From positions 54,413-118,412 of IMG/VR virus record IMGVR_UViG_3300047557_002741: a DNA stretch of 64,000 nucleotides. One strand, 5' to 3'. Shown here piece by piece: positions 38,996 to 62,483 of this stretch. This DNA is from a virus. Made by a program: the position numbers and the translations under genes. Under the pieces are notes generated by a model, which saw only the letters and a list, made by a program, of their open reading frames with translations, did no database searches and was not told where the DNA came from. Every line of letters begins with the position of its first letter. Positions within the stretch are counted from its first letter, which is position 1.

Positions 38996-40153
38996 TCAAC
39001 CACGAGAAGAATCAAGAATGTTATTTCTCCAATCTTCACTCATGTTAACCATGATTGCTTCTGCAGACTCAACACTATCAGCATATCCTTCATCAAGAAG
39101 ATGCTCAAGAACCACATCATAAAGATCAAGAGTTTCAACTTCTTCAATTAAATATGACTCTACTAAATTAGAGGTTTGATCATCACACAAATTCTCAATT
39201 AGGTCGTATGCTTCATAAACATTGTTCACATATCCATCATTAATCAGGTCTTGAACTAAGATATCTAGAAGTTCAAAACTCTCTGAAGCAGTAAGTCTTG
39301 CTTCTCTTTTTTGTGCTTGTATTCTGGATTTTTTGGTTTTAAAAGTACCAGCAGGTTGTCCTTGTTGAACCGTTTCGGATGGACCAGATCCAGAAGCTGC
39401 TGAAGCAAGTTTAGCAGCTGCTGCTTTTCTTCTATCTACGGAAACTGTCTTAGTTTTTGCTGCAGGAAGTGCCGGTCTCTCTTTTCCAGGTTGTCCAATT
39501 CTTGGATTTGCTGAGGTTCCAACTGGAGATGCTTTAAATTCACTAGTATCTCTTCCTCTAGAAGCAGCTGCTTGGCGTCTAGCAGCTCTTCTCATTTCTC
39601 TACCAGTTGTTCTTGCTTTTGCTTCTCTTGCAGATTGTCCACTGAACTCTTTCTTAGCAGCAGAAGCACCTGCTTTAACTGCACTGCCAACTCTCTTAAC
39701 TAGACCAACGATTTTTTCTTTAGCAGACTTAAGTTTACCACCAACTTTTGCAGCACCACCTGCTGCAGCAGAAACTGCTCCAGCACCTAGTGTCTTTGCT
39801 CTTTCTCCTGCTCTTTTTGCAGCACCCTTAATTCTTTCCATTCTTGCTGTTCTTCTTTCAGAAGCTTCAGCAGATCTCTTTGATTTAGTGGTTGATTTAT
39901 TATATGCTTTTGCTTCTTTAGAACCTGCAGGAGCATATGGATTCATTTCTAAAATGAGTCCTTCAAAAACTTGAACACATTCAGAAAGTTCTACACCTTC
40001 AGAAAGAATTTCTTCCATTACTTGATCAAGTTCATTGTCACTTAAATCATCAATAAAAGAAAGATCTTCTTCGATAGAAATATCATCACGAAGTTCTTCA
40101 TCATAAACAGCAACATATGCTTCACACAAACCTCTAATCTGTTTTGAGTCCAT
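38996..40153 (-). CDS. Head-associated-type protein, paralogue of 57728-58798
   Basis: 385-aa protein: N-terminal module MDSKQIRGLCEAYVAVY, acidic helices to 70, an Ala/Lys/Arg-rich basic core (80-290, pI clearly high), and a C-terminal module with VVLEHLLDEGYADSVESAEAIMVNMSEDW. The N- and C-terminal modules recur in the protein at 57728-58798. A late promoter (40181-40188) lies upstream. Probable virion or scaffold protein; no enzyme motif. Confidence 0.7.
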   Translation of the reverse strand: MDSKQIRGLCEAYVAVYDEELRDDISIEEDLSFIDDLSDNELDQVMEEILSEGVELSECVQVFEGLILEMNPYAPAGSKEAKAYNKSTTKSKRSAEASERRTARMERIKGAAKRAGERAKTLGAGAVSAAAGGAAKVGGKLKSAKEKIVGLVKRVGSAVKAGASAAKKEFSGQSAREAKARTTGREMRRAARRQAAASRGRDTSEFKASPVGTSANPRIGQPGKERPALPAAKTKTVSVDRRKAAAAKLASAASGSGPSETVQQGQPAGTFKTKKSRIQAQKREARLTASESFELLDILVQDLINDGYVNNVYEAYDLIENLCDDQTSNLVESYLIEEVETLDLYDVVLEHLLDEGYADSVESAEAIMVNMSEDWRNNILDSSRG

Positions 40154-40196: not shown

Positions 40197-40610
40197 CTAT
40201 CCACCTCTTCCTTTTGTGCCATAAGTTCTTCCAGATCTTGCAATATTTGTTCCTCTTCCTCCAGCAGTTCCTTTCTTAGCATATCTGTGCTGAGTAATTA
40301 CATCCGGTTCCGCAGGAAGATCTGTTCTTTGAACATTGCTGGTTGTTCCAACTCTACTTGCAACATCTTTTGGTTTTGATGCATAACCACCAACATATGA
40401 ATTTGGTTTCGTCTGTGGTTTTGGTTTATCGCTAGTAGCAGCTCCTATTTTTGCCTGAGTTCCTGCTTGAAGTTCGCCCGCCTGAACATTTAATTTCTTA
40501 AATGTTTCCATATCGCCTTTTTGCATTGCTTGTCTTGCCTTTGCTCTTAATGCTGCAATTTGAGAAGAAACGTTTTCTGCTTCAGCAATAAACTCCGAAA
40601 AAGTTTTCAT
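40197..40610 (-). CDS. Probable late structural protein (137 aa)
   Basis: Starts MKTFSEFIAEAENVSSQIAA at 40610, a leader shared by many late proteins, with an Ala/Gln-rich helix, then a flexible Gly/Arg/Lys-rich tail (KKGTAGGRGTNIARSGRTYG). A late-like GATAAATA is about 15-25 bases upstream. Function unknown. Confidence 0.65.
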   Translation of the reverse strand: MKTFSEFIAEAENVSSQIAALRAKARQAMQKGDMETFKKLNVQAGELQAGTQAKIGAATSDKPKPQTKPNSYVGGYASKPKDVASRVGTTSNVQRTDLPAEPDVITQHRYAKKGTAGGRGTNIARSGRTYGTKGRGG

Positions 40611-40641
40611 TACACCTAAACACTTTTTAGTATTTATCAAA

Positions 40642-41151
40642 TTAAACCAATTCCATTGGATAATGCTCAGAATCTATGTTTATAGTTTTTTTCTTTTTTT
40701 TCTTTGCTTCGTTAACTGGAGCAAGAGCAAATAATCCAGGATTTTTTTCTCCAAATTTTCTTACGATTGTTCCTGCAAGTCTATTTGCTTCATTTTCTGT
40801 AGGACTTCCTGCCTTACCACTTCCATGAACTCCATAACTATGTTGACCATAATGAGTAAGTTCATGCGCTAATGTTCTTAGAATATCCATAATCTGACGA
40901 CCTTTAATAGAAATCATAATACGATTATCTTTAATCTGACCAAATGCTGCAATTCTTTTTGCAAACTTAGGATCATCAACAAAATGAATTTTTGGTAGTT
41001 TTTTGATTTTTAATTCTTTTTTTACAAAAGGAAGAAAGTTATGAACTATATTTTCAAATTGTTTTGTTGATATTCCTTCTGCAATAAAAGACAGTGAAAT
41101 GATGAACATCTCACTGTCTCTTTGAAGTTTTCTCCACTCAGAAAAATACAT
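40642..41151 (-). CDS. Zincin-type metallopeptidase-like protein
   Basis: 169-aa protein with LRTLAHELTHYGQHSYG (HExxH zinc site, catalytic Glu) and a downstream TENEANRLAG segment where a Glu could be the third ligand. The C-terminal tail is KKKKKKTINIDSEHYPMELV. Could process virion or host proteins. A late-like AATAAATA precedes it. Which protease family it belongs to is unclear. Confidence 0.7.
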   Translation of the reverse strand: MYFSEWRKLQRDSEMFIISLSFIAEGISTKQFENIVHNFLPFVKKELKIKKLPKIHFVDDPKFAKRIAAFGQIKDNRIMISIKGRQIMDILRTLAHELTHYGQHSYGVHGSGKAGSPTENEANRLAGTIVRKFGEKNPGLFALAPVNEAKKKKKKTINIDSEHYPMELV

Positions 41152-41357: not shown

Positions 41358-41758
41358 AGATCTCCCACCTTACGATTTTCTGAGCGTTCAATACTAAATG
41401 CACCTTCAGGATAACGAGCACTTAGTTTTTCAAAGTTCATTTGGATTACTTCTTCAATAGAAATATCAAGTCCAATACATGCCTGTGAAACATACCACAT
41501 AATATCTCCAAGTTCACGCTTTAGATGAAAAAGATTTTCTTCATTTACAGGTTTACCTTGGAATACAATTTTTTTCACCACCTCAGTAAATTCACCTGCC
41601 TCAGCACTCATACCTACAGCAGCAGTAAGCAATCGCTCAGTAGGAAATCCTTTTTCACGAAGTTCAAGGAGACGATCGATGAAAGGTGTGTGTTCTTTAC
41701 TAGGATTAGAGGTAGTGGCATTAACGAACTCAACATACTTGTTCAAATCAATAGTCAT
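41354..41758 (-). CDS. mazG: MazG-type nucleotide pyrophosphohydrolase
   Basis: 134-aa all-alpha NTP pyrophosphatase. The metal motif GMSAEAGEFTEVVKKIVFQ and the second KRELGDIMWYVSQACIGLD form the ExxE...ExxD set. Cyanophage MazG hydrolyses dGTP/dCTP or alarmone-like nucleotides. Follows the C-terminal helicase fragment with one-base overlap of stop and start. Confidence 0.88.
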   Translation of the reverse strand: MTIDLNKYVEFVNATTSNPSKEHTPFIDRLLELREKGFPTERLLTAAVGMSAEAGEFTEVVKKIVFQGKPVNEENLFHLKRELGDIMWYVSQACIGLDISIEEVIQMNFEKLSARYPEGAFSIERSENRKVGDL

Positions 41759-42180
41759 TAGAATTTAAATCCTTCGAATGTTTTTTTGGGTTTCTTTTCT
41801 TCATAATCATACTCTTCATCCTTTCCGTTGTCAAGAATATCTTGTTGAGCAGATTGTTCGCAATCATAAAGACGCATTTTAGCACGATCAATACCAATCA
41901 CAAAACGCTTATGAATGGTAGGATCATTATAGCGATTCTTAAGTTGTTTAACAAGAATCTGTCCAAGTCCTTCAAGTTCTTCTGTAGAAATCAAAGCAAA
42001 CATCAAGTCAGCAGTAGCAGGCAAACCAAATGACTCTGAAGTATCGGTCAATTCCACATCAGAACTACTATTATGCGTGAGAATATCATTCGCATAGAAC
42101 AGATGATTTCCAGACACTTCAATATCTACAAGTTCTCTTTCATCAAGTTCTTCAATTTTTAGAATTTTTTTCAATAACAT
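41758..42180 (-). CDS. 41: gp41 helicase C-terminal fragment with C-intein
   Basis: 140-aa product. Residues 1-37 are a C-terminal split intein (MLLKKILKIEELDERELVDI, then VSGNHLFYANDILTHN with terminal Asn37), followed by Ser38 as the +1 extein residue and 103 residues of DnaB-family helicase (LTDTSESFGLPATADLMFAL, QLKNRYND). Matches the gp41-1 split intein by recognition. It must trans-splice with the product of 43545-44876 to make a whole helicase. The ATG at 42180 starts the intein; a TTG just upstream is unlikely. Confidence 0.93.
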   Translation of the reverse strand: MLLKKILKIEELDERELVDIEVSGNHLFYANDILTHNSSSDVELTDTSESFGLPATADLMFALISTEELEGLGQILVKQLKNRYNDPTIHKRFVIGIDRAKMRLYDCEQSAQQDILDNGKDEEYDYEEKKPKKTFEGFKF

Positions 42181-42182
42181 TT

Positions 42183-42734
42183 TCAATTCAAAATAGCATA
42201 ACGAACTCTATAAAAAGCAACTAATTGAGGATAAGTCATTTTTCCATATCCATCTTCAACAACTAATGTTTCTGTTCTAGCAGGAGTATAAGAAACCTCA
42301 TAAAGAAACACCATCTTGTTATTTTCTTTGAGTTCCTTTACAAACTTCACAATCTCATCAAAGTTCTCACCCACAACCTTATAAGTTTTTGCTTCAACAC
42401 TCTTTCGGTTATAAAGAGCAGTTGGTCCCAAAAGAAATCCATCAATATAATCTTTGATTTGATTTACATAACCAATCGTATTCTCTTTTAGATTTTCTGG
42501 TTCCTCTTCTTTAAAAAGTTCATAATTCTTTTTCATAGAGGAAAGTGAATTCTCTAACCACTCATCAAAATCAAAAGTGATACAATAGTTTTCTTCTGGA
42601 ATGGGTTCATCTTCCCATTCAAACTTTTTGTTTTCTCCAAACTCTTGGATTTGATTGAAATGAGACACTAATGCCTTATGCGTGTCTTCATCCGTAATCG
42701 CAAGGTTTTCGTTGTATTCATAAGTTTTAGTCAT
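42183..42734 (-). CDS. Hypothetical protein inside the broken helicase gene
   Basis: 183-aa acidic protein (MTKTYEYNENLAITDEDTHK, ITFDFDEWLENSLSS, FLYEVSYTPARTETLVVED). No known family. It lies between the endonuclease and the C-intein gene, overlapping the endonuclease stop (ATGA), so it travels and is translated with it. Could be a former helicase-region neighbour or cargo of the mobile element. Confidence 0.7.
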   Translation of the reverse strand: MTKTYEYNENLAITDEDTHKALVSHFNQIQEFGENKKFEWEDEPIPEENYCITFDFDEWLENSLSSMKKNYELFKEEEPENLKENTIGYVNQIKDYIDGFLLGPTALYNRKSVEAKTYKVVGENFDEIVKFVKELKENNKMVFLYEVSYTPARTETLVVEDGYGKMTYPQLVAFYRVRYAILN

Positions 42735-43495
42735 TTTTTAATCCTCCCACAAACAAATCCTTTTTCAGTATAATTTTCATAATCCCAAATATCAACACAT
42801 AAACATTCTACCACATTATTAATCCAAATAACACCTTTTCCATTTTCCCAACCATTCAATAAGTAAAGATTAATTTCTTCTTTTTTGATAAATTTTCTTT
42901 CTTTTAAATCTTTTTTATGTATCCAAGTTCTACCAGAAGAACATTCTGCTATTTTATTTTTATGTTCCTCTGTAAGTTTTTTCCCTCTTTTACTCTCTGC
43001 TATTTTATTTTTAGTTTCTTGTGAATGATTCGTATTGAATTTTGTGTATAAACCAAGAGAGTATCTATGCTTTTTAGTTTTTCTCATTTTTTCTTTTGAT
43101 TGTGTAGAAAAACTTATTCCATAGTTCCACGCCCTACCATTTCTAATATTCTCTTCTATTTGTTCTTGATTTGCTCCGTGATAGTGTTTCTCATAATTAC
43201 AAGTTTCATATCTCATATTATATCCACATCCATCCATACAATGAGATTTGTATTTACGGATATAATAATCTTCTTTCATTCTTGCTTCACTTTCATCAAC
43301 TTCTTCTATCACCTCAATAGTAAAGTTTCTTTTACCATATTCAATAATAGCATCAGATAGAAGTTTATTTCCTTCGTGCCTTCCAAGAGTAATATGTTCT
43401 TGCAATCTTCTATCCAATTCATTTTTAGTCAATCCAACATAATACATATGCGGATTGACTGCTGTGTTGGTAATTAGATAAATCTTTACTTTCAT
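42731..43495 (-). CDS. GIY-YIG/NUMOD homing endonuclease in the intein break
   Basis: 254-aa protein. N-terminal GIY-YIG-type domain: KIYLITNTAVNPHMYYVGLT is the variant GIY-YIG (YLI...YVG), KNELDRRLQEHI the Arg-containing helix, SEARMKEDYYI the catalytic Glu region. The middle contains NUMOD3-like DNA-binding repeats (SQETKNKIAESKRGKKLTEE and EHKNKIAE). A T4 late promoter precedes it. It is expected to cut intein-less gp41 alleles and spread the broken gene. Confidence 0.87.
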   Translation of the reverse strand: MKVKIYLITNTAVNPHMYYVGLTKNELDRRLQEHITLGRHEGNKLLSDAIIEYGKRNFTIEVIEEVDESEARMKEDYYIRKYKSHCMDGCGYNMRYETCNYEKHYHGANQEQIEENIRNGRAWNYGISFSTQSKEKMRKTKKHRYSLGLYTKFNTNHSQETKNKIAESKRGKKLTEEHKNKIAECSSGRTWIHKKDLKERKFIKKEEINLYLLNGWENGKGVIWINNVVECLCVDIWDYENYTEKGFVCGRIKK

Positions 43496-43516
43496 ATCAG
43501 TAAGTTATACTACTAT

Positions 43517-43524
43517 TATTTATA
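43517..43524 (-). promoter_or_regulatory. T4-type late promoter of the endonuclease
   Basis: TATAAATA on the minus strand (context CTTATAAATAATAGTAG), 21 bases before the ATG at 43495. It would uncouple endonuclease expression from the early helicase transcript, as in T4 I-TevI. Confidence 0.65.
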
Positions 43525-43544
43525 AGAAGTATAACTTACACATA

Positions 43545-44876
43545 CTATTCCTTCACATAAAGATACATACCCTCGTTTAGTCCGCCCTTGATATTCATTT
43601 CGCCCGTTTGAGTTGGAAATAAGTGCTCCTCACTACAAATGATTTCTTTACCATCTTCCAAAGTAATCTTATAAGATTTCTTTTTAGATTTTGGGAAGAC
43701 ATTTAGAACTTCATTATAACCAGTATTTGAAAGCAACAAATCTCCAACTTGAATATTTGAAAGTTCTTTCAGTCCTTGCGGTGTTTGAACTTGTGTTTTC
43801 AAATCCAAGCAATACCCTGAACGAGTAGTTTGAGTAGCACTTACAATCGGAACATTAAACTCAACAGCAAGTCCACGAAGTTCTTCGGCAATTGCTTTCA
43901 CAAAAGTGTACGAATTAATATTTGCATTTCCACGATATCTGGAAGAAGAACAAATGTTAAGATAGTCAATAAAGATAATATCTGGTTTGAATGACTTCTT
44001 AAGAGCAAGTTCGTTAAGAAGAGATTTAAAATGTCCAGCATGAGCAGAAGCAGTTGGATATTCCTTAATAATCAAAGTGCCTTGAGTCTTCTTTGCCAGA
44101 TTATTAACTTTATTTTCAAAAATTTGCTTAGGAAGATCAACGATGTCTTGAATAGGAACATTCAAGAGGTTTGCGTCAATTCTTTCAGCAATGCGTTCTT
44201 CTGCCATTTCCAGCGTAATGTACAAAACGTTCCTCCCTTGGAGCAAGACGGAGCTAGCAACATGGCACATGAATAGAGACTTGCCGACGCCCGTACCAGC
44301 AAGAGCGATATTAAGAGTTTTGTTAGGGATCCCACCTTTCGTGATTTTGTTAAAATATTCAAGATCAAATTCAATTTTATCCTCCTTTTTATGATATGAT
44401 TCGTACCTTTGTTCATAATCTTGTAAGTAATCGTGTCCAATGTGAGTATCAAAACTCACAGAAAGAGCATCAGAAAGAATAGAAGGAATACTATCTCGAT
44501 TTTTCTTTTCATCCTTACCATCAGCAATATGAATTGATTCCATAAGTGCCAAATAAATGGCACGATCACGACACCACTTTTCAGTACAATTTACTAACCA
44601 GTTAAATTCAACTGAAATATCTTCGAGAGAAGAAATCAAATGAATAATCTCTTTAAAAGAAGTGTCATTGATGTCCTTACGTTTTTCTATCTCAATACAA
44701 AGAACTTCTTTGGTTGCTGGTTGATTATATTGCTCAACAAAAGAAAGTATTTCTTCAAATACAATCTTTTGGTTTTGATCTTCAAAATATTCAGATTTAA
44801 TAAATGGTATAACTTTTCTGATGTATTGCTCATTATATAACAGGTTTCTAAGAATTAGAAACTCAACCTTCTCCAT
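43545..44876 (-). CDS. 41: gp41 helicase N-terminal fragment with N-intein
   Basis: 443-aa product. Residues 1-355 are a T4 gp41/DnaB-family replicative helicase (Walker A AGTGVGKS at 193-200, Walker B IIFIDYLN near 300, motif H4 [10 protein letters not shown] at 346-355). Residues 356-443 are an N-terminal split intein beginning with catalytic Cys356 ([36 protein letters not shown]) and ending at a true stop. The break falls in the helicase core, so the fragment alone should be inactive. Starts 14 bases inside the uvsX end. Confidence 0.94.
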
Positions 44877-61988: not shown

Positions 61989-62483
61989 TCAATAGCGAAG
62001 TTTAGAATGCACTGCGTCTTTAATCGAATTATAGTCGCTATAGTTGCTTCCGTCAATAGAGTTGTCCTCAAATACTTCAGAGTATCCAGAACGCTCAAGG
62101 ATTTTGTTCTTGATTTCTAACTGACGCTTCTCTCTTTGAATACGACGAAGAAAAGCGTAGTGAATGATTTGAGTGAAGTAAGCAAAAGGATTCTGTGACT
62201 TCTCAGGATTGAAGTTGTGAATATACTGAACGCAGTTTTCAATACCATCGGAAATCATGTCTTCCTTAAACATATAGTTTACGAAGTTAGGTTTAAAGGA
62301 AAGATGATTTGCGATCTTCAGGAAACACTCTCCAATGTAGCGAGGAATGGGAGGTTTTGGTTTTCCTTGAATCTCTGCGATTTCTTTATCTTCGCGGTAT
62401 TTAATCAATGCTGCAAGAAACTCTTTGTTATTGACGTAATGCTCTGACCTCTTTCTTTTGGTCATGACTGCTGTGGTAATCAT
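61989..62483 (-). CDS. 55: Late-transcription sigma factor gp55
   Basis: 164-aa sigma-family protein that recognises TATAAATA late promoters. KPPIPRYIGECFLKIANHLSFKPNFVNYMFKEDMISDGIENC is region 2-like; NFNPEKSQNPFAYFTQIIHYAFLRRIQREKRQ follows. The TATAAATA boxes in this window are its probable targets. Two possible ATGs; 62483 gives the full length. A strong promoter lies upstream. Confidence 0.93.
   Translation of the reverse strand: MITTAVMTKRKRSEHYVNNKEFLAALIKYREDKEIAEIQGKPKPPIPRYIGECFLKIANHLSFKPNFVNYMFKEDMISDGIENCVQYIHNFNPEKSQNPFAYFTQIIHYAFLRRIQREKRQLEIKNKILERSGYSEVFEDNSIDGSNYSDYNSIKDAVHSKLRY

What the first reader, a model, noticed from the sequence alone, without database searches (positions are those of the whole stretch)
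42183..43524. Endonuclease-plus-cargo insertion between intein halves, with its own late promoter
The break holds a GIY-YIG/NUMOD3 endonuclease and a 183-aa protein of unknown family, coupled by an ATGA overlap. A T4-type late promoter lies 21 bases before the endonuclease. This delays expression, as T4 I-TevI does with its late promoter in an early gene. A GIY-YIG enzyme in a split-intein break contrasts with the Vsr-like family I recall for other fractured genes. The 183-aa protein has no assigned role.
Basis: partly seen in the sequence, partly recalled or inferred. Interest (0 to 1): 0.72.

Follow-up and report, generated by a model that had tools for sequence, protein, structure and literature searches.

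The report
Self-spreading split-gene cassette carrying swappable genes
In a marine virus of cyanobacteria, a DNA-helicase gene is cut in two by a split intein (protein pieces that splice themselves together) and the gap holds a DNA-cutting 'homing' gene plus a passenger gene; about 46 related virus sequences show that the cutter is probably held back by an RNA hairpin until late in infection and that the passenger is an exchangeable cargo travelling with it.

Summary
On the minus strand gp41 helicase is split after RSGY by a gp41-1-type split intein. The break carries a GIY-YIG/NUMOD3 endonuclease (254 aa) and a 183-aa ORF, with TATAAATA 21 bases before the endonuclease.

(1) TATAAATA lies in the loop of a perfect 11-bp inverted repeat whose 3' arm ends 4 nt before the endonuclease ATG. 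Early read-through RNA should mask the start; late RNA starting near 43,511 should lack the 5' arm. This is the logic described for T4 I-TevI. TATAAATA is present in 40/40 related loci and the stem keeps at least 9 of 11 pairs in each.

(2) The 183-aa gene is one of several interchangeable cargos: none, 183-aa, a DNA methylase, a late-promoter 'EAY' family, small ORFs. Cargo follows the endonuclease tree (9 changes; shuffles 18) and not the host-gene tree (16; shuffles 15.6). One element moved nearly unchanged between hosts whose gp41 N-parts are 74% identical.

A second split-intein break in the same gene (P-loop) also holds cargo of the EAY family. Cleavage and expression timing are untested. 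I call it a new variant of the known fractured-gene arrangement: a homing cassette with a cargo slot.

The parts
43812..44876 (-). gp41 (DnaB-like helicase) N-extein, ends ...ATQTTRSGY
   Evidence: PHROG 19 1.6e-107, Pfam DnaB_C; extein ends where intein-less cyanophage gp41 continues RSGY-G/A-SSD
43545..43811 (-). N-half of split intein (88 aa, CLDLKTQ...YVKE, stop TAG)
   Evidence: phmmer to PDB 6RIZ/6QAZ gp41-1 intein, E about 2e-50
43529..43539 (-). 5' arm of start-masking hairpin, GTAAGTTATAC
   Evidence: fold -15.8 kcal/mol, z -3.44; pairs kept 11/11 in 29 of 40 loci, at least 9 in all
43517..43524 (-). T4-type late promoter TATAAATA, in the hairpin loop
   Evidence: present in 40/40 loci; 29 nt before ATG, same spacing as late-type genes; phage encodes gp55 late sigma
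43500..43510 (-). 3' arm of hairpin, GTATAACTTAC, ends 4 nt before the endonuclease ATG; predicted late +1 near 43511
42731..43495 (-). GIY-YIG/NUMOD3 homing endonuclease, 254 aa; candidate catalytic residues Y6 Y19 R30 H34 H40 E75 N93 invariant in 18 relatives
   Evidence: TIGR01453 61.5 bits over cut-off 56.05; PHROG 314 and 5123; alignment A2
42743..42748 (-). Shine-Dalgarno GGGAGG inside the endonuclease 3' end; feeds the 183-aa cargo here, and the gp41 C-half in cargo-less relatives
42183..42734 (-). 183-aa cargo ORF (unknown function), ATGA overlap with endonuclease
   Evidence: relatives in the same break L001-L006, L009 and elsewhere L007, L008, L104, L105, phage B23; AlphaFold pLDDT 80.6, no PDB fold match
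42070..42180 (-). C-half of split intein (37 aa, MLLKKILK...ILTHN); start has no Shine-Dalgarno, lies 2 nt after the cargo stop
41758..42069 (-). gp41 C-extein, begins SSSDVEL (Ser+1)
   Evidence: PHROG 19 2.7e-21; +1 Ser in all intein loci, Gly/Ala in most intein-less
61998..62483 (-). gp55-like late sigma factor gene of the same genome (supports late-promoter reading)
   Evidence: 57% identity, E 2.9e-58, G000:C1:116410-116895

Best explanation
This is a mobile homing cassette. A gp41-1-type split intein lets the gp41 helicase tolerate an insertion because the two halves are spliced together as proteins. The insertion carries a GIY-YIG endonuclease, inferred to cut intein-less gp41 alleles at the insertion site so that repair copies the whole cassette, plus the first downstream Ser codon, into the recipient. 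Read-through RNA from the early gp41 operon folds a hairpin over the endonuclease start and keeps it silent. Late RNA starting inside the hairpin (about 43,511) lacks the 5' arm, so the endonuclease is made late. Between endonuclease and C-half is a slot for passenger genes; here it holds a captured 183-aa phage accessory gene that has taken over the Shine-Dalgarno formerly serving the C-half, whose translation now depends on coupling to the cargo. Shown from sequence: anatomy, family membership, hairpin and promoter conservation, independent movement of the cassette with its cargo, cargo exchange. Inferred: cleavage, timing, translational coupling. Unknown: what the 183-aa protein does.
For: Mobility: in 31 loci, identity at fourfold sites is 0.51 for N-extein, 0.75 for IN, 0.81 for endonuclease; distance correlation is 0.08 extein-endonuclease against 0.53 IN-endonuclease; L057/L058 have 74% identical N-exteins but 100% IN/IC/leader, 99.8% endonuclease and the same cargo sequence. 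Cargo follows the endonuclease tree (9 changes, shuffled 18.0, 0/200 as low) and not the host tree (16 changes, shuffled 15.6, 156/200; single cargo clades rejected, AU p 8e-9 and 4e-6). Co-conversion of +1 codon: Ser in all intein loci, Gly/Ala in 41 of 51 intein-less. Timing: hairpin and TATAAATA in 40/40; start-region unpaired probability 0.18 in early RNA, 0.62 in late RNA; gp55 present; I-TevI, segB and mobE precedents (PMC2988022). Relay: C-half Shine-Dalgarno -7 to -10 kcal/mol in 5 of 6 cargo-less loci, -1.5 in 5 of 6 loci with the 183-aa gene; deletion remnants L020, L026, L060-L063 all keep a short ORF running up to the C-half ATG.
Against: No cleavage, RNA or splicing data. The stem tolerates a mismatch at one position in 9 of 40 loci, and only one compensatory change was seen, so covariation is weak. 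The endonuclease has no recognisable Shine-Dalgarno even on late RNA (-1.6), unlike I-TevI. No sequence resembling the homing site overlaps the promoter, so I-TevI-style autorepression is not supported. No clear co-conversion tract beyond the first codons. L009 has a moderate C-half Shine-Dalgarno (-6.7) despite carrying cargo.
Confidence: 0.72

Rival explanations
1. The 183-aa protein is a dedicated partner of the endonuclease or intein (immunity protein, co-regulator or targeting factor) that is needed for homing.
For: Close relatives (80% or more) are all in this break directly after the endonuclease, sharing ATGA and Shine-Dalgarno.
Against: Near-identical endonucleases occur with no cargo, a methylase, EAY proteins or small ORFs. 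The gene has been deleted in L020 and L026 with the endonuclease left intact. Distant relatives live free in phage genomes without this element.
Confidence: 0.08
2. The locus is a frozen, vertically inherited relic: endonuclease no longer mobile, retained because gp41 halves depend on it for expression.
For: Some relatives are clearly dead (L060-L063, L084, L086 lost the endonuclease; L076 lost it but kept the cargo; L075 is frameshifted).
Against: Open reading frames with invariant candidate catalytic residues in 18 relatives. Cassette distances are uncorrelated with host-gene distances. Near-identical cassettes sit in divergent hosts.
Confidence: 0.1
3. The inverted repeat is a DNA operator for a repressor (or another protein site) rather than an RNA hairpin that masks the start.
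For: An 11-bp palindrome centred on a promoter is also a classic operator layout; covariation is too weak to prove RNA pairing. I-TevI is an autorepressor (PMC2988022).
Against: No resemblance between leader and homing site (13/20, mostly no better than shuffles). The 3' arm position 4 nt before ATG and the predicted late start at the arm match the T4 masking hairpins. L017 shows a G-U compatible pair and L029 a compensatory pair.
Confidence: 0.12

Closest known systems
Fractured genes with split inteins and a free-standing endonuclease (Dassa et al. 2009, doi 10.1093/nar/gkp095; not held, recalled)
   Same: Conserved DNA-metabolism gene broken by a split intein with an endonuclease gene in the break; the gp41-1 intein itself comes from this work
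   Different: Here a GIY-YIG/NUMOD3 enzyme, a promoter-in-hairpin leader and an exchangeable cargo slot. Whether that paper noted any of these could not be checked
T4 I-TevI / segB / Aeh1 mobE hairpin-plus-late-promoter control (PMC2988022, PMC3014915)
   Same: Late promoter at an RNA structure masking the endonuclease start; endonuclease inside an early operon
   Different: Split intein instead of a group I intron or an intergenic site; no evident Shine-Dalgarno in the masked region; no operator resembling the homing site
HEG-islands (PMC10448857)
   Same: Homing endonuclease genes mobilise neighbouring phage genes as cargo
   Different: HEG-islands have cargo bracketed by endonucleases and no discrete ends. 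Here cargo is inside one intein-bounded element with exact ends and is exchanged within it
Collaborative homing (free-standing endonuclease cutting an intron site; psbA of cyanophages, T3), as described in PMC10448857
   Same: Free-standing endonuclease mobilising a splicing element
   Different: There the endonuclease is adjacent to the gene; here it is inside the splicing element

Membership tests
gp41-1 split intein | Sequence match to the solved gp41-1 intein; Cys1, C-terminal HN, Ser+1; two separate ORFs | tested here: met
   PDB 6RIZ E 1.7e-50; C...HN|S read directly
gp41-1 split intein | Trans-splicing activity | not testable with these tools
   needs expression
GIY-YIG (I-TevI-like) homing endonuclease | Curated family model above cut-off | tested here: met
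   TIGR01453 61.5 vs 56.05; Pfam has no GIY-YIG hit, only weak T5orf172, but NUMOD3 passes
GIY-YIG (I-TevI-like) homing endonuclease | Catalytic residues (I-TevI Y6, Y17, R27, H31, H40, E75, N90; numbering recalled) | tested here: met
   Y6 Y19 R30 H34 H40 E75 N93 invariant in 18 sequences; positional correspondence set by eye
GIY-YIG (I-TevI-like) homing endonuclease | Cleavage of the intein-less allele | not testable with these tools
   biochemistry required
I-TevI-type hairpin / late-promoter control | Stable stem masking the start, late promoter placed so that late RNA lacks the 5' arm | tested here: met
I-TevI-type hairpin / late-promoter control | Consensus Shine-Dalgarno in the masked stem | tested here: not met
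   anti-SD duplex only -1.6
I-TevI-type hairpin / late-promoter control | Operator resembling the homing site (autorepression) | tested here: not met
   best 13/20, mostly no better than shuffles
Fractured-gene locus (split intein + free-standing endonuclease) | Gene broken by split intein, endonuclease ORF in the break, intact gene in relatives | tested here: met

The most novel reading that the evidence does not exclude
Breaks of split inteins in phage replication genes are general cargo-docking sites: a class of intein-bounded mobile elements in which a homing endonuclease spreads exchangeable phage genes, each with its own expression module. Evidence: two unrelated breaks in one gene (gp41-1 site with a GIY-YIG enzyme; P-loop site with an antisense HNH-like enzyme) both hold cargo from the same EAY family with its own late promoter.
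Probability: 0.5. Interest if true: 0.75.

Novelty: new variant of a known kind. Interest (0 to 1): 0.64.

Why it matters
gp41-1 is among the fastest split inteins and a widely used protein-engineering tool, but its natural setting has been little described. This locus suggests why such inteins are split: the break houses a timed homing endonuclease and passenger genes. If true, it gives an intein-bounded mobile element with exact ends that moves phage genes between distant hosts, a testable RNA switch that times homing to late infection, and a clear experiment on whether cargo selects for keeping a selfish element.

Tried and rejected
Dassa 2009 is not held. I-TevI-style operator: not supported. 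Co-conversion tract from extein identity gradients: no clear tract beyond the first codons. Remote homology for the 183-aa protein: no Pfam, PADLOC or NCBIfam family, PDB profile search E >= 0.5, PDB fold search E > 0.1; only uncharacterised viral folds (S-CAM7, E 6.6e-6). Endonuclease against PDB sequences: nothing. Count of TATAAATA in the window as evidence: rejected, equal to chance. An ungapped first comparison of exteins was misaligned and was redone by codon alignment. No endonuclease of this family at any useful identity in the isolate phage collection.

Full report
What is there. The window lies in a 118-kb virus record with T4-like cyanophage gene order: gp43, uvsX, gp41, mazG. On the minus strand gp41 is broken after RSGY. 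The N-half carries an 88-aa intein fragment that matches the solved gp41-1 intein. The C-half starts at 42180 with the 37-aa C-fragment and resumes at SSSDVEL. Cultured relatives have an uninterrupted gene at this point. The break holds a 254-aa endonuclease and a 183-aa ORF.

The endonuclease. It passes the NCBIfam model for group I intron endonucleases (TIGR01453), hits GIY-YIG homing-endonuclease PHROGs and passes NUMOD3. Seven residues at positions close to the I-TevI catalytic set (numbering recalled) are invariant in 18 relatives. No member of this close family was found in the isolate phage collection; the nearest were about 30% identical over part of the protein.

The switch. Between the intein stop and the endonuclease ATG lie 49 bases: GTAAGTTATAC-ttctTATAAATAatagta-GTATAACTTAC-tgat-ATG. 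The 11-bp arms are perfect complements, and the fold is better than all 200 shuffles. The late promoter is in the loop. T4 late promoters start RNA about one turn downstream of the TATA box (PMC2988020), which puts +1 near 43,511, at the first base of the 3' arm. Predicted unpaired probability of the start region is 0.18 on read-through RNA and 0.62 on late RNA. In 40 related loci TATAAATA is always present. The stem has 11 of 11 pairs in 29 loci and at least 9 in all. 42 of 52 leader columns are invariant, against 25/60 and 38/88 third codon positions in the neighbouring endonuclease and intein. The same arrangement is described for I-TevI, I-TevII, I-TevIII, segB and mobE in T-even phages (PMC2988022; PMC3014915). 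Cyanophages are reported to use NATAAATA late promoters and to encode gp55 (PMC2984593), and this genome encodes gp55. Differences from I-TevI: no recognisable Shine-Dalgarno at the endonuclease, and no operator like the homing site.

The cargo slot. Scans of IMG/VR gave about 46 contigs with this intein or endonuclease. By my tally the slot between endonuclease and C-half holds: the 183-aa gene (8 contigs, one of them nearly identical to the window's own virus), its deletion remnants (2), nothing (6), an N6/N4 DNA methylase (3; Pfam 7.8e-29), an 'EAY' family with conserved ends (M.......LQEAY and DIYDIILSHLLDEGYAETPEAAEAIMVNMSEEW; 18), and other ORFs (3), one with a KptA/ART-like stretch and an internal-head-protein-like N-terminus. 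Six near-identical contigs lost the endonuclease and half of the 183-aa gene. L076 lost the endonuclease and kept an EAY cargo.

Movement. Extein and cassette histories are unlinked: the correlation of pairwise identities is 0.08 for extein-endonuclease and 0.53 for IN-endonuclease. L057 and L058 share a 100% identical leader, IN and IC, a 99.8% identical endonuclease and the same cargo, although their N-exteins are 74% identical. Cargo type maps on the endonuclease tree with 9 changes (shuffled mean 18) but on the host gp41 tree with 16 (shuffled mean 15.6). Forcing single host clades for the 183-aa or EAY cargo is rejected. So cargo travels with the endonuclease. The first extein residue after the intein is Ser in every intein locus but Gly or Ala in 41 of 51 distinct intein-less genes, as expected if that codon is copied with the element.

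How the halves keep being made. In five of six cargo-less loci the C-half ATG has a GGGAG(G) Shine-Dalgarno inside the endonuclease 3' end. With the 183-aa gene inserted, that site feeds the cargo and the C-half has none in five of six loci; its ATG follows the cargo stop by 2 nt. The deletion remnants L020, L026 and L060-L063 all retain a short ORF that runs up to the C-half ATG. This supports, but does not prove, a translational relay from cargo to C-half that would also let the C-half be made early while the endonuclease is masked.

The 183-aa protein. Distant relatives occur free in cyanophage-like genomes: phage B23 gp89 32%, L104 49% and L105 35%, and L007/L008 68% next to structural and homing genes. 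It is therefore a captured accessory gene. AlphaFold gives an alpha/beta fold (pLDDT 80.6) with no match in PDB. Function unknown; passenger status is the best-supported role.

Generality. The same gp41 gene has another split intein at the P-loop in relatives. Of about 70 loci with both flanks visible, roughly 20 carry cargo besides, or instead of, an antisense HNH-like ORF (Pfam HNH only 14.7 bits, below cut-off), about 40 carry that ORF alone, and 10 have no insertion (tally mine). Most of these cargos are again EAY proteins. Across both breaks 21 of 22 distinct EAY starts have NATAAATA 27-35 nt upstream, against 1.2% at random positions. So capture of complete late-gene modules into split-intein breaks happened at two unrelated sites.

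Verdict. The view of the 183-aa gene should change from partner to passenger. Families and control logic are each known; the combination, an intein-bounded homing cassette with an exchangeable cargo slot, is to my knowledge a new variant. I could not check what Dassa 2009 reported for these loci.

Noticed in passing
L018:1250-2339, L029:1840-2911, L081:4030-4560, L061:4040-4560 and about 70 loci: Second split intein in gp41 at the P-loop (ALAG|...|TGVGKS) with a very short N part (about 16-20 aa before the stop); contiguous in L061-L063. The break often holds an antisense HNH-like ORF and sometimes EAY cargo. It may correspond to atypically split inteins already described (recalled, not checked).
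   Followed up: partly
L023:2287-2970: A third split intein lies 11 codons after the gp41-1 site, with no endonuclease in its break; gp41 there must be assembled from three polypeptides.
   Followed up: no
window 38996-40153, 40197-40640; cargo in L052-L058, L152-L177: EAY-type proteins begin with LQEAY/LCEAY, and 40197-40640 has MKTFSEFIAEA; these N-termini look like T4 capsid-targeting peptides cut by the gp21 protease (recalled), so many cargos may be packaged internal head proteins.
   Followed up: partly
L153, L159, L196, L205 P-loop breaks; window 40642-41151: P-loop cargo 'MYFKEFL...SISHFLSFIKKELNLSNLPKI' resembles by eye the window's own 169-aa ORF downstream of mazG.
   Followed up: no
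L020:2436-2470, L026:3808-3856, L060:2601-2828: Deletions that removed the 183-aa gene and/or the endonuclease all left a short ORF ending at or within a few bases of the gp41 C-half ATG.
   Followed up: partly
L076:4829-5478: Endonuclease lost but EAY cargo and its late promoter retained: cargo outliving the nuclease.
   Followed up: no
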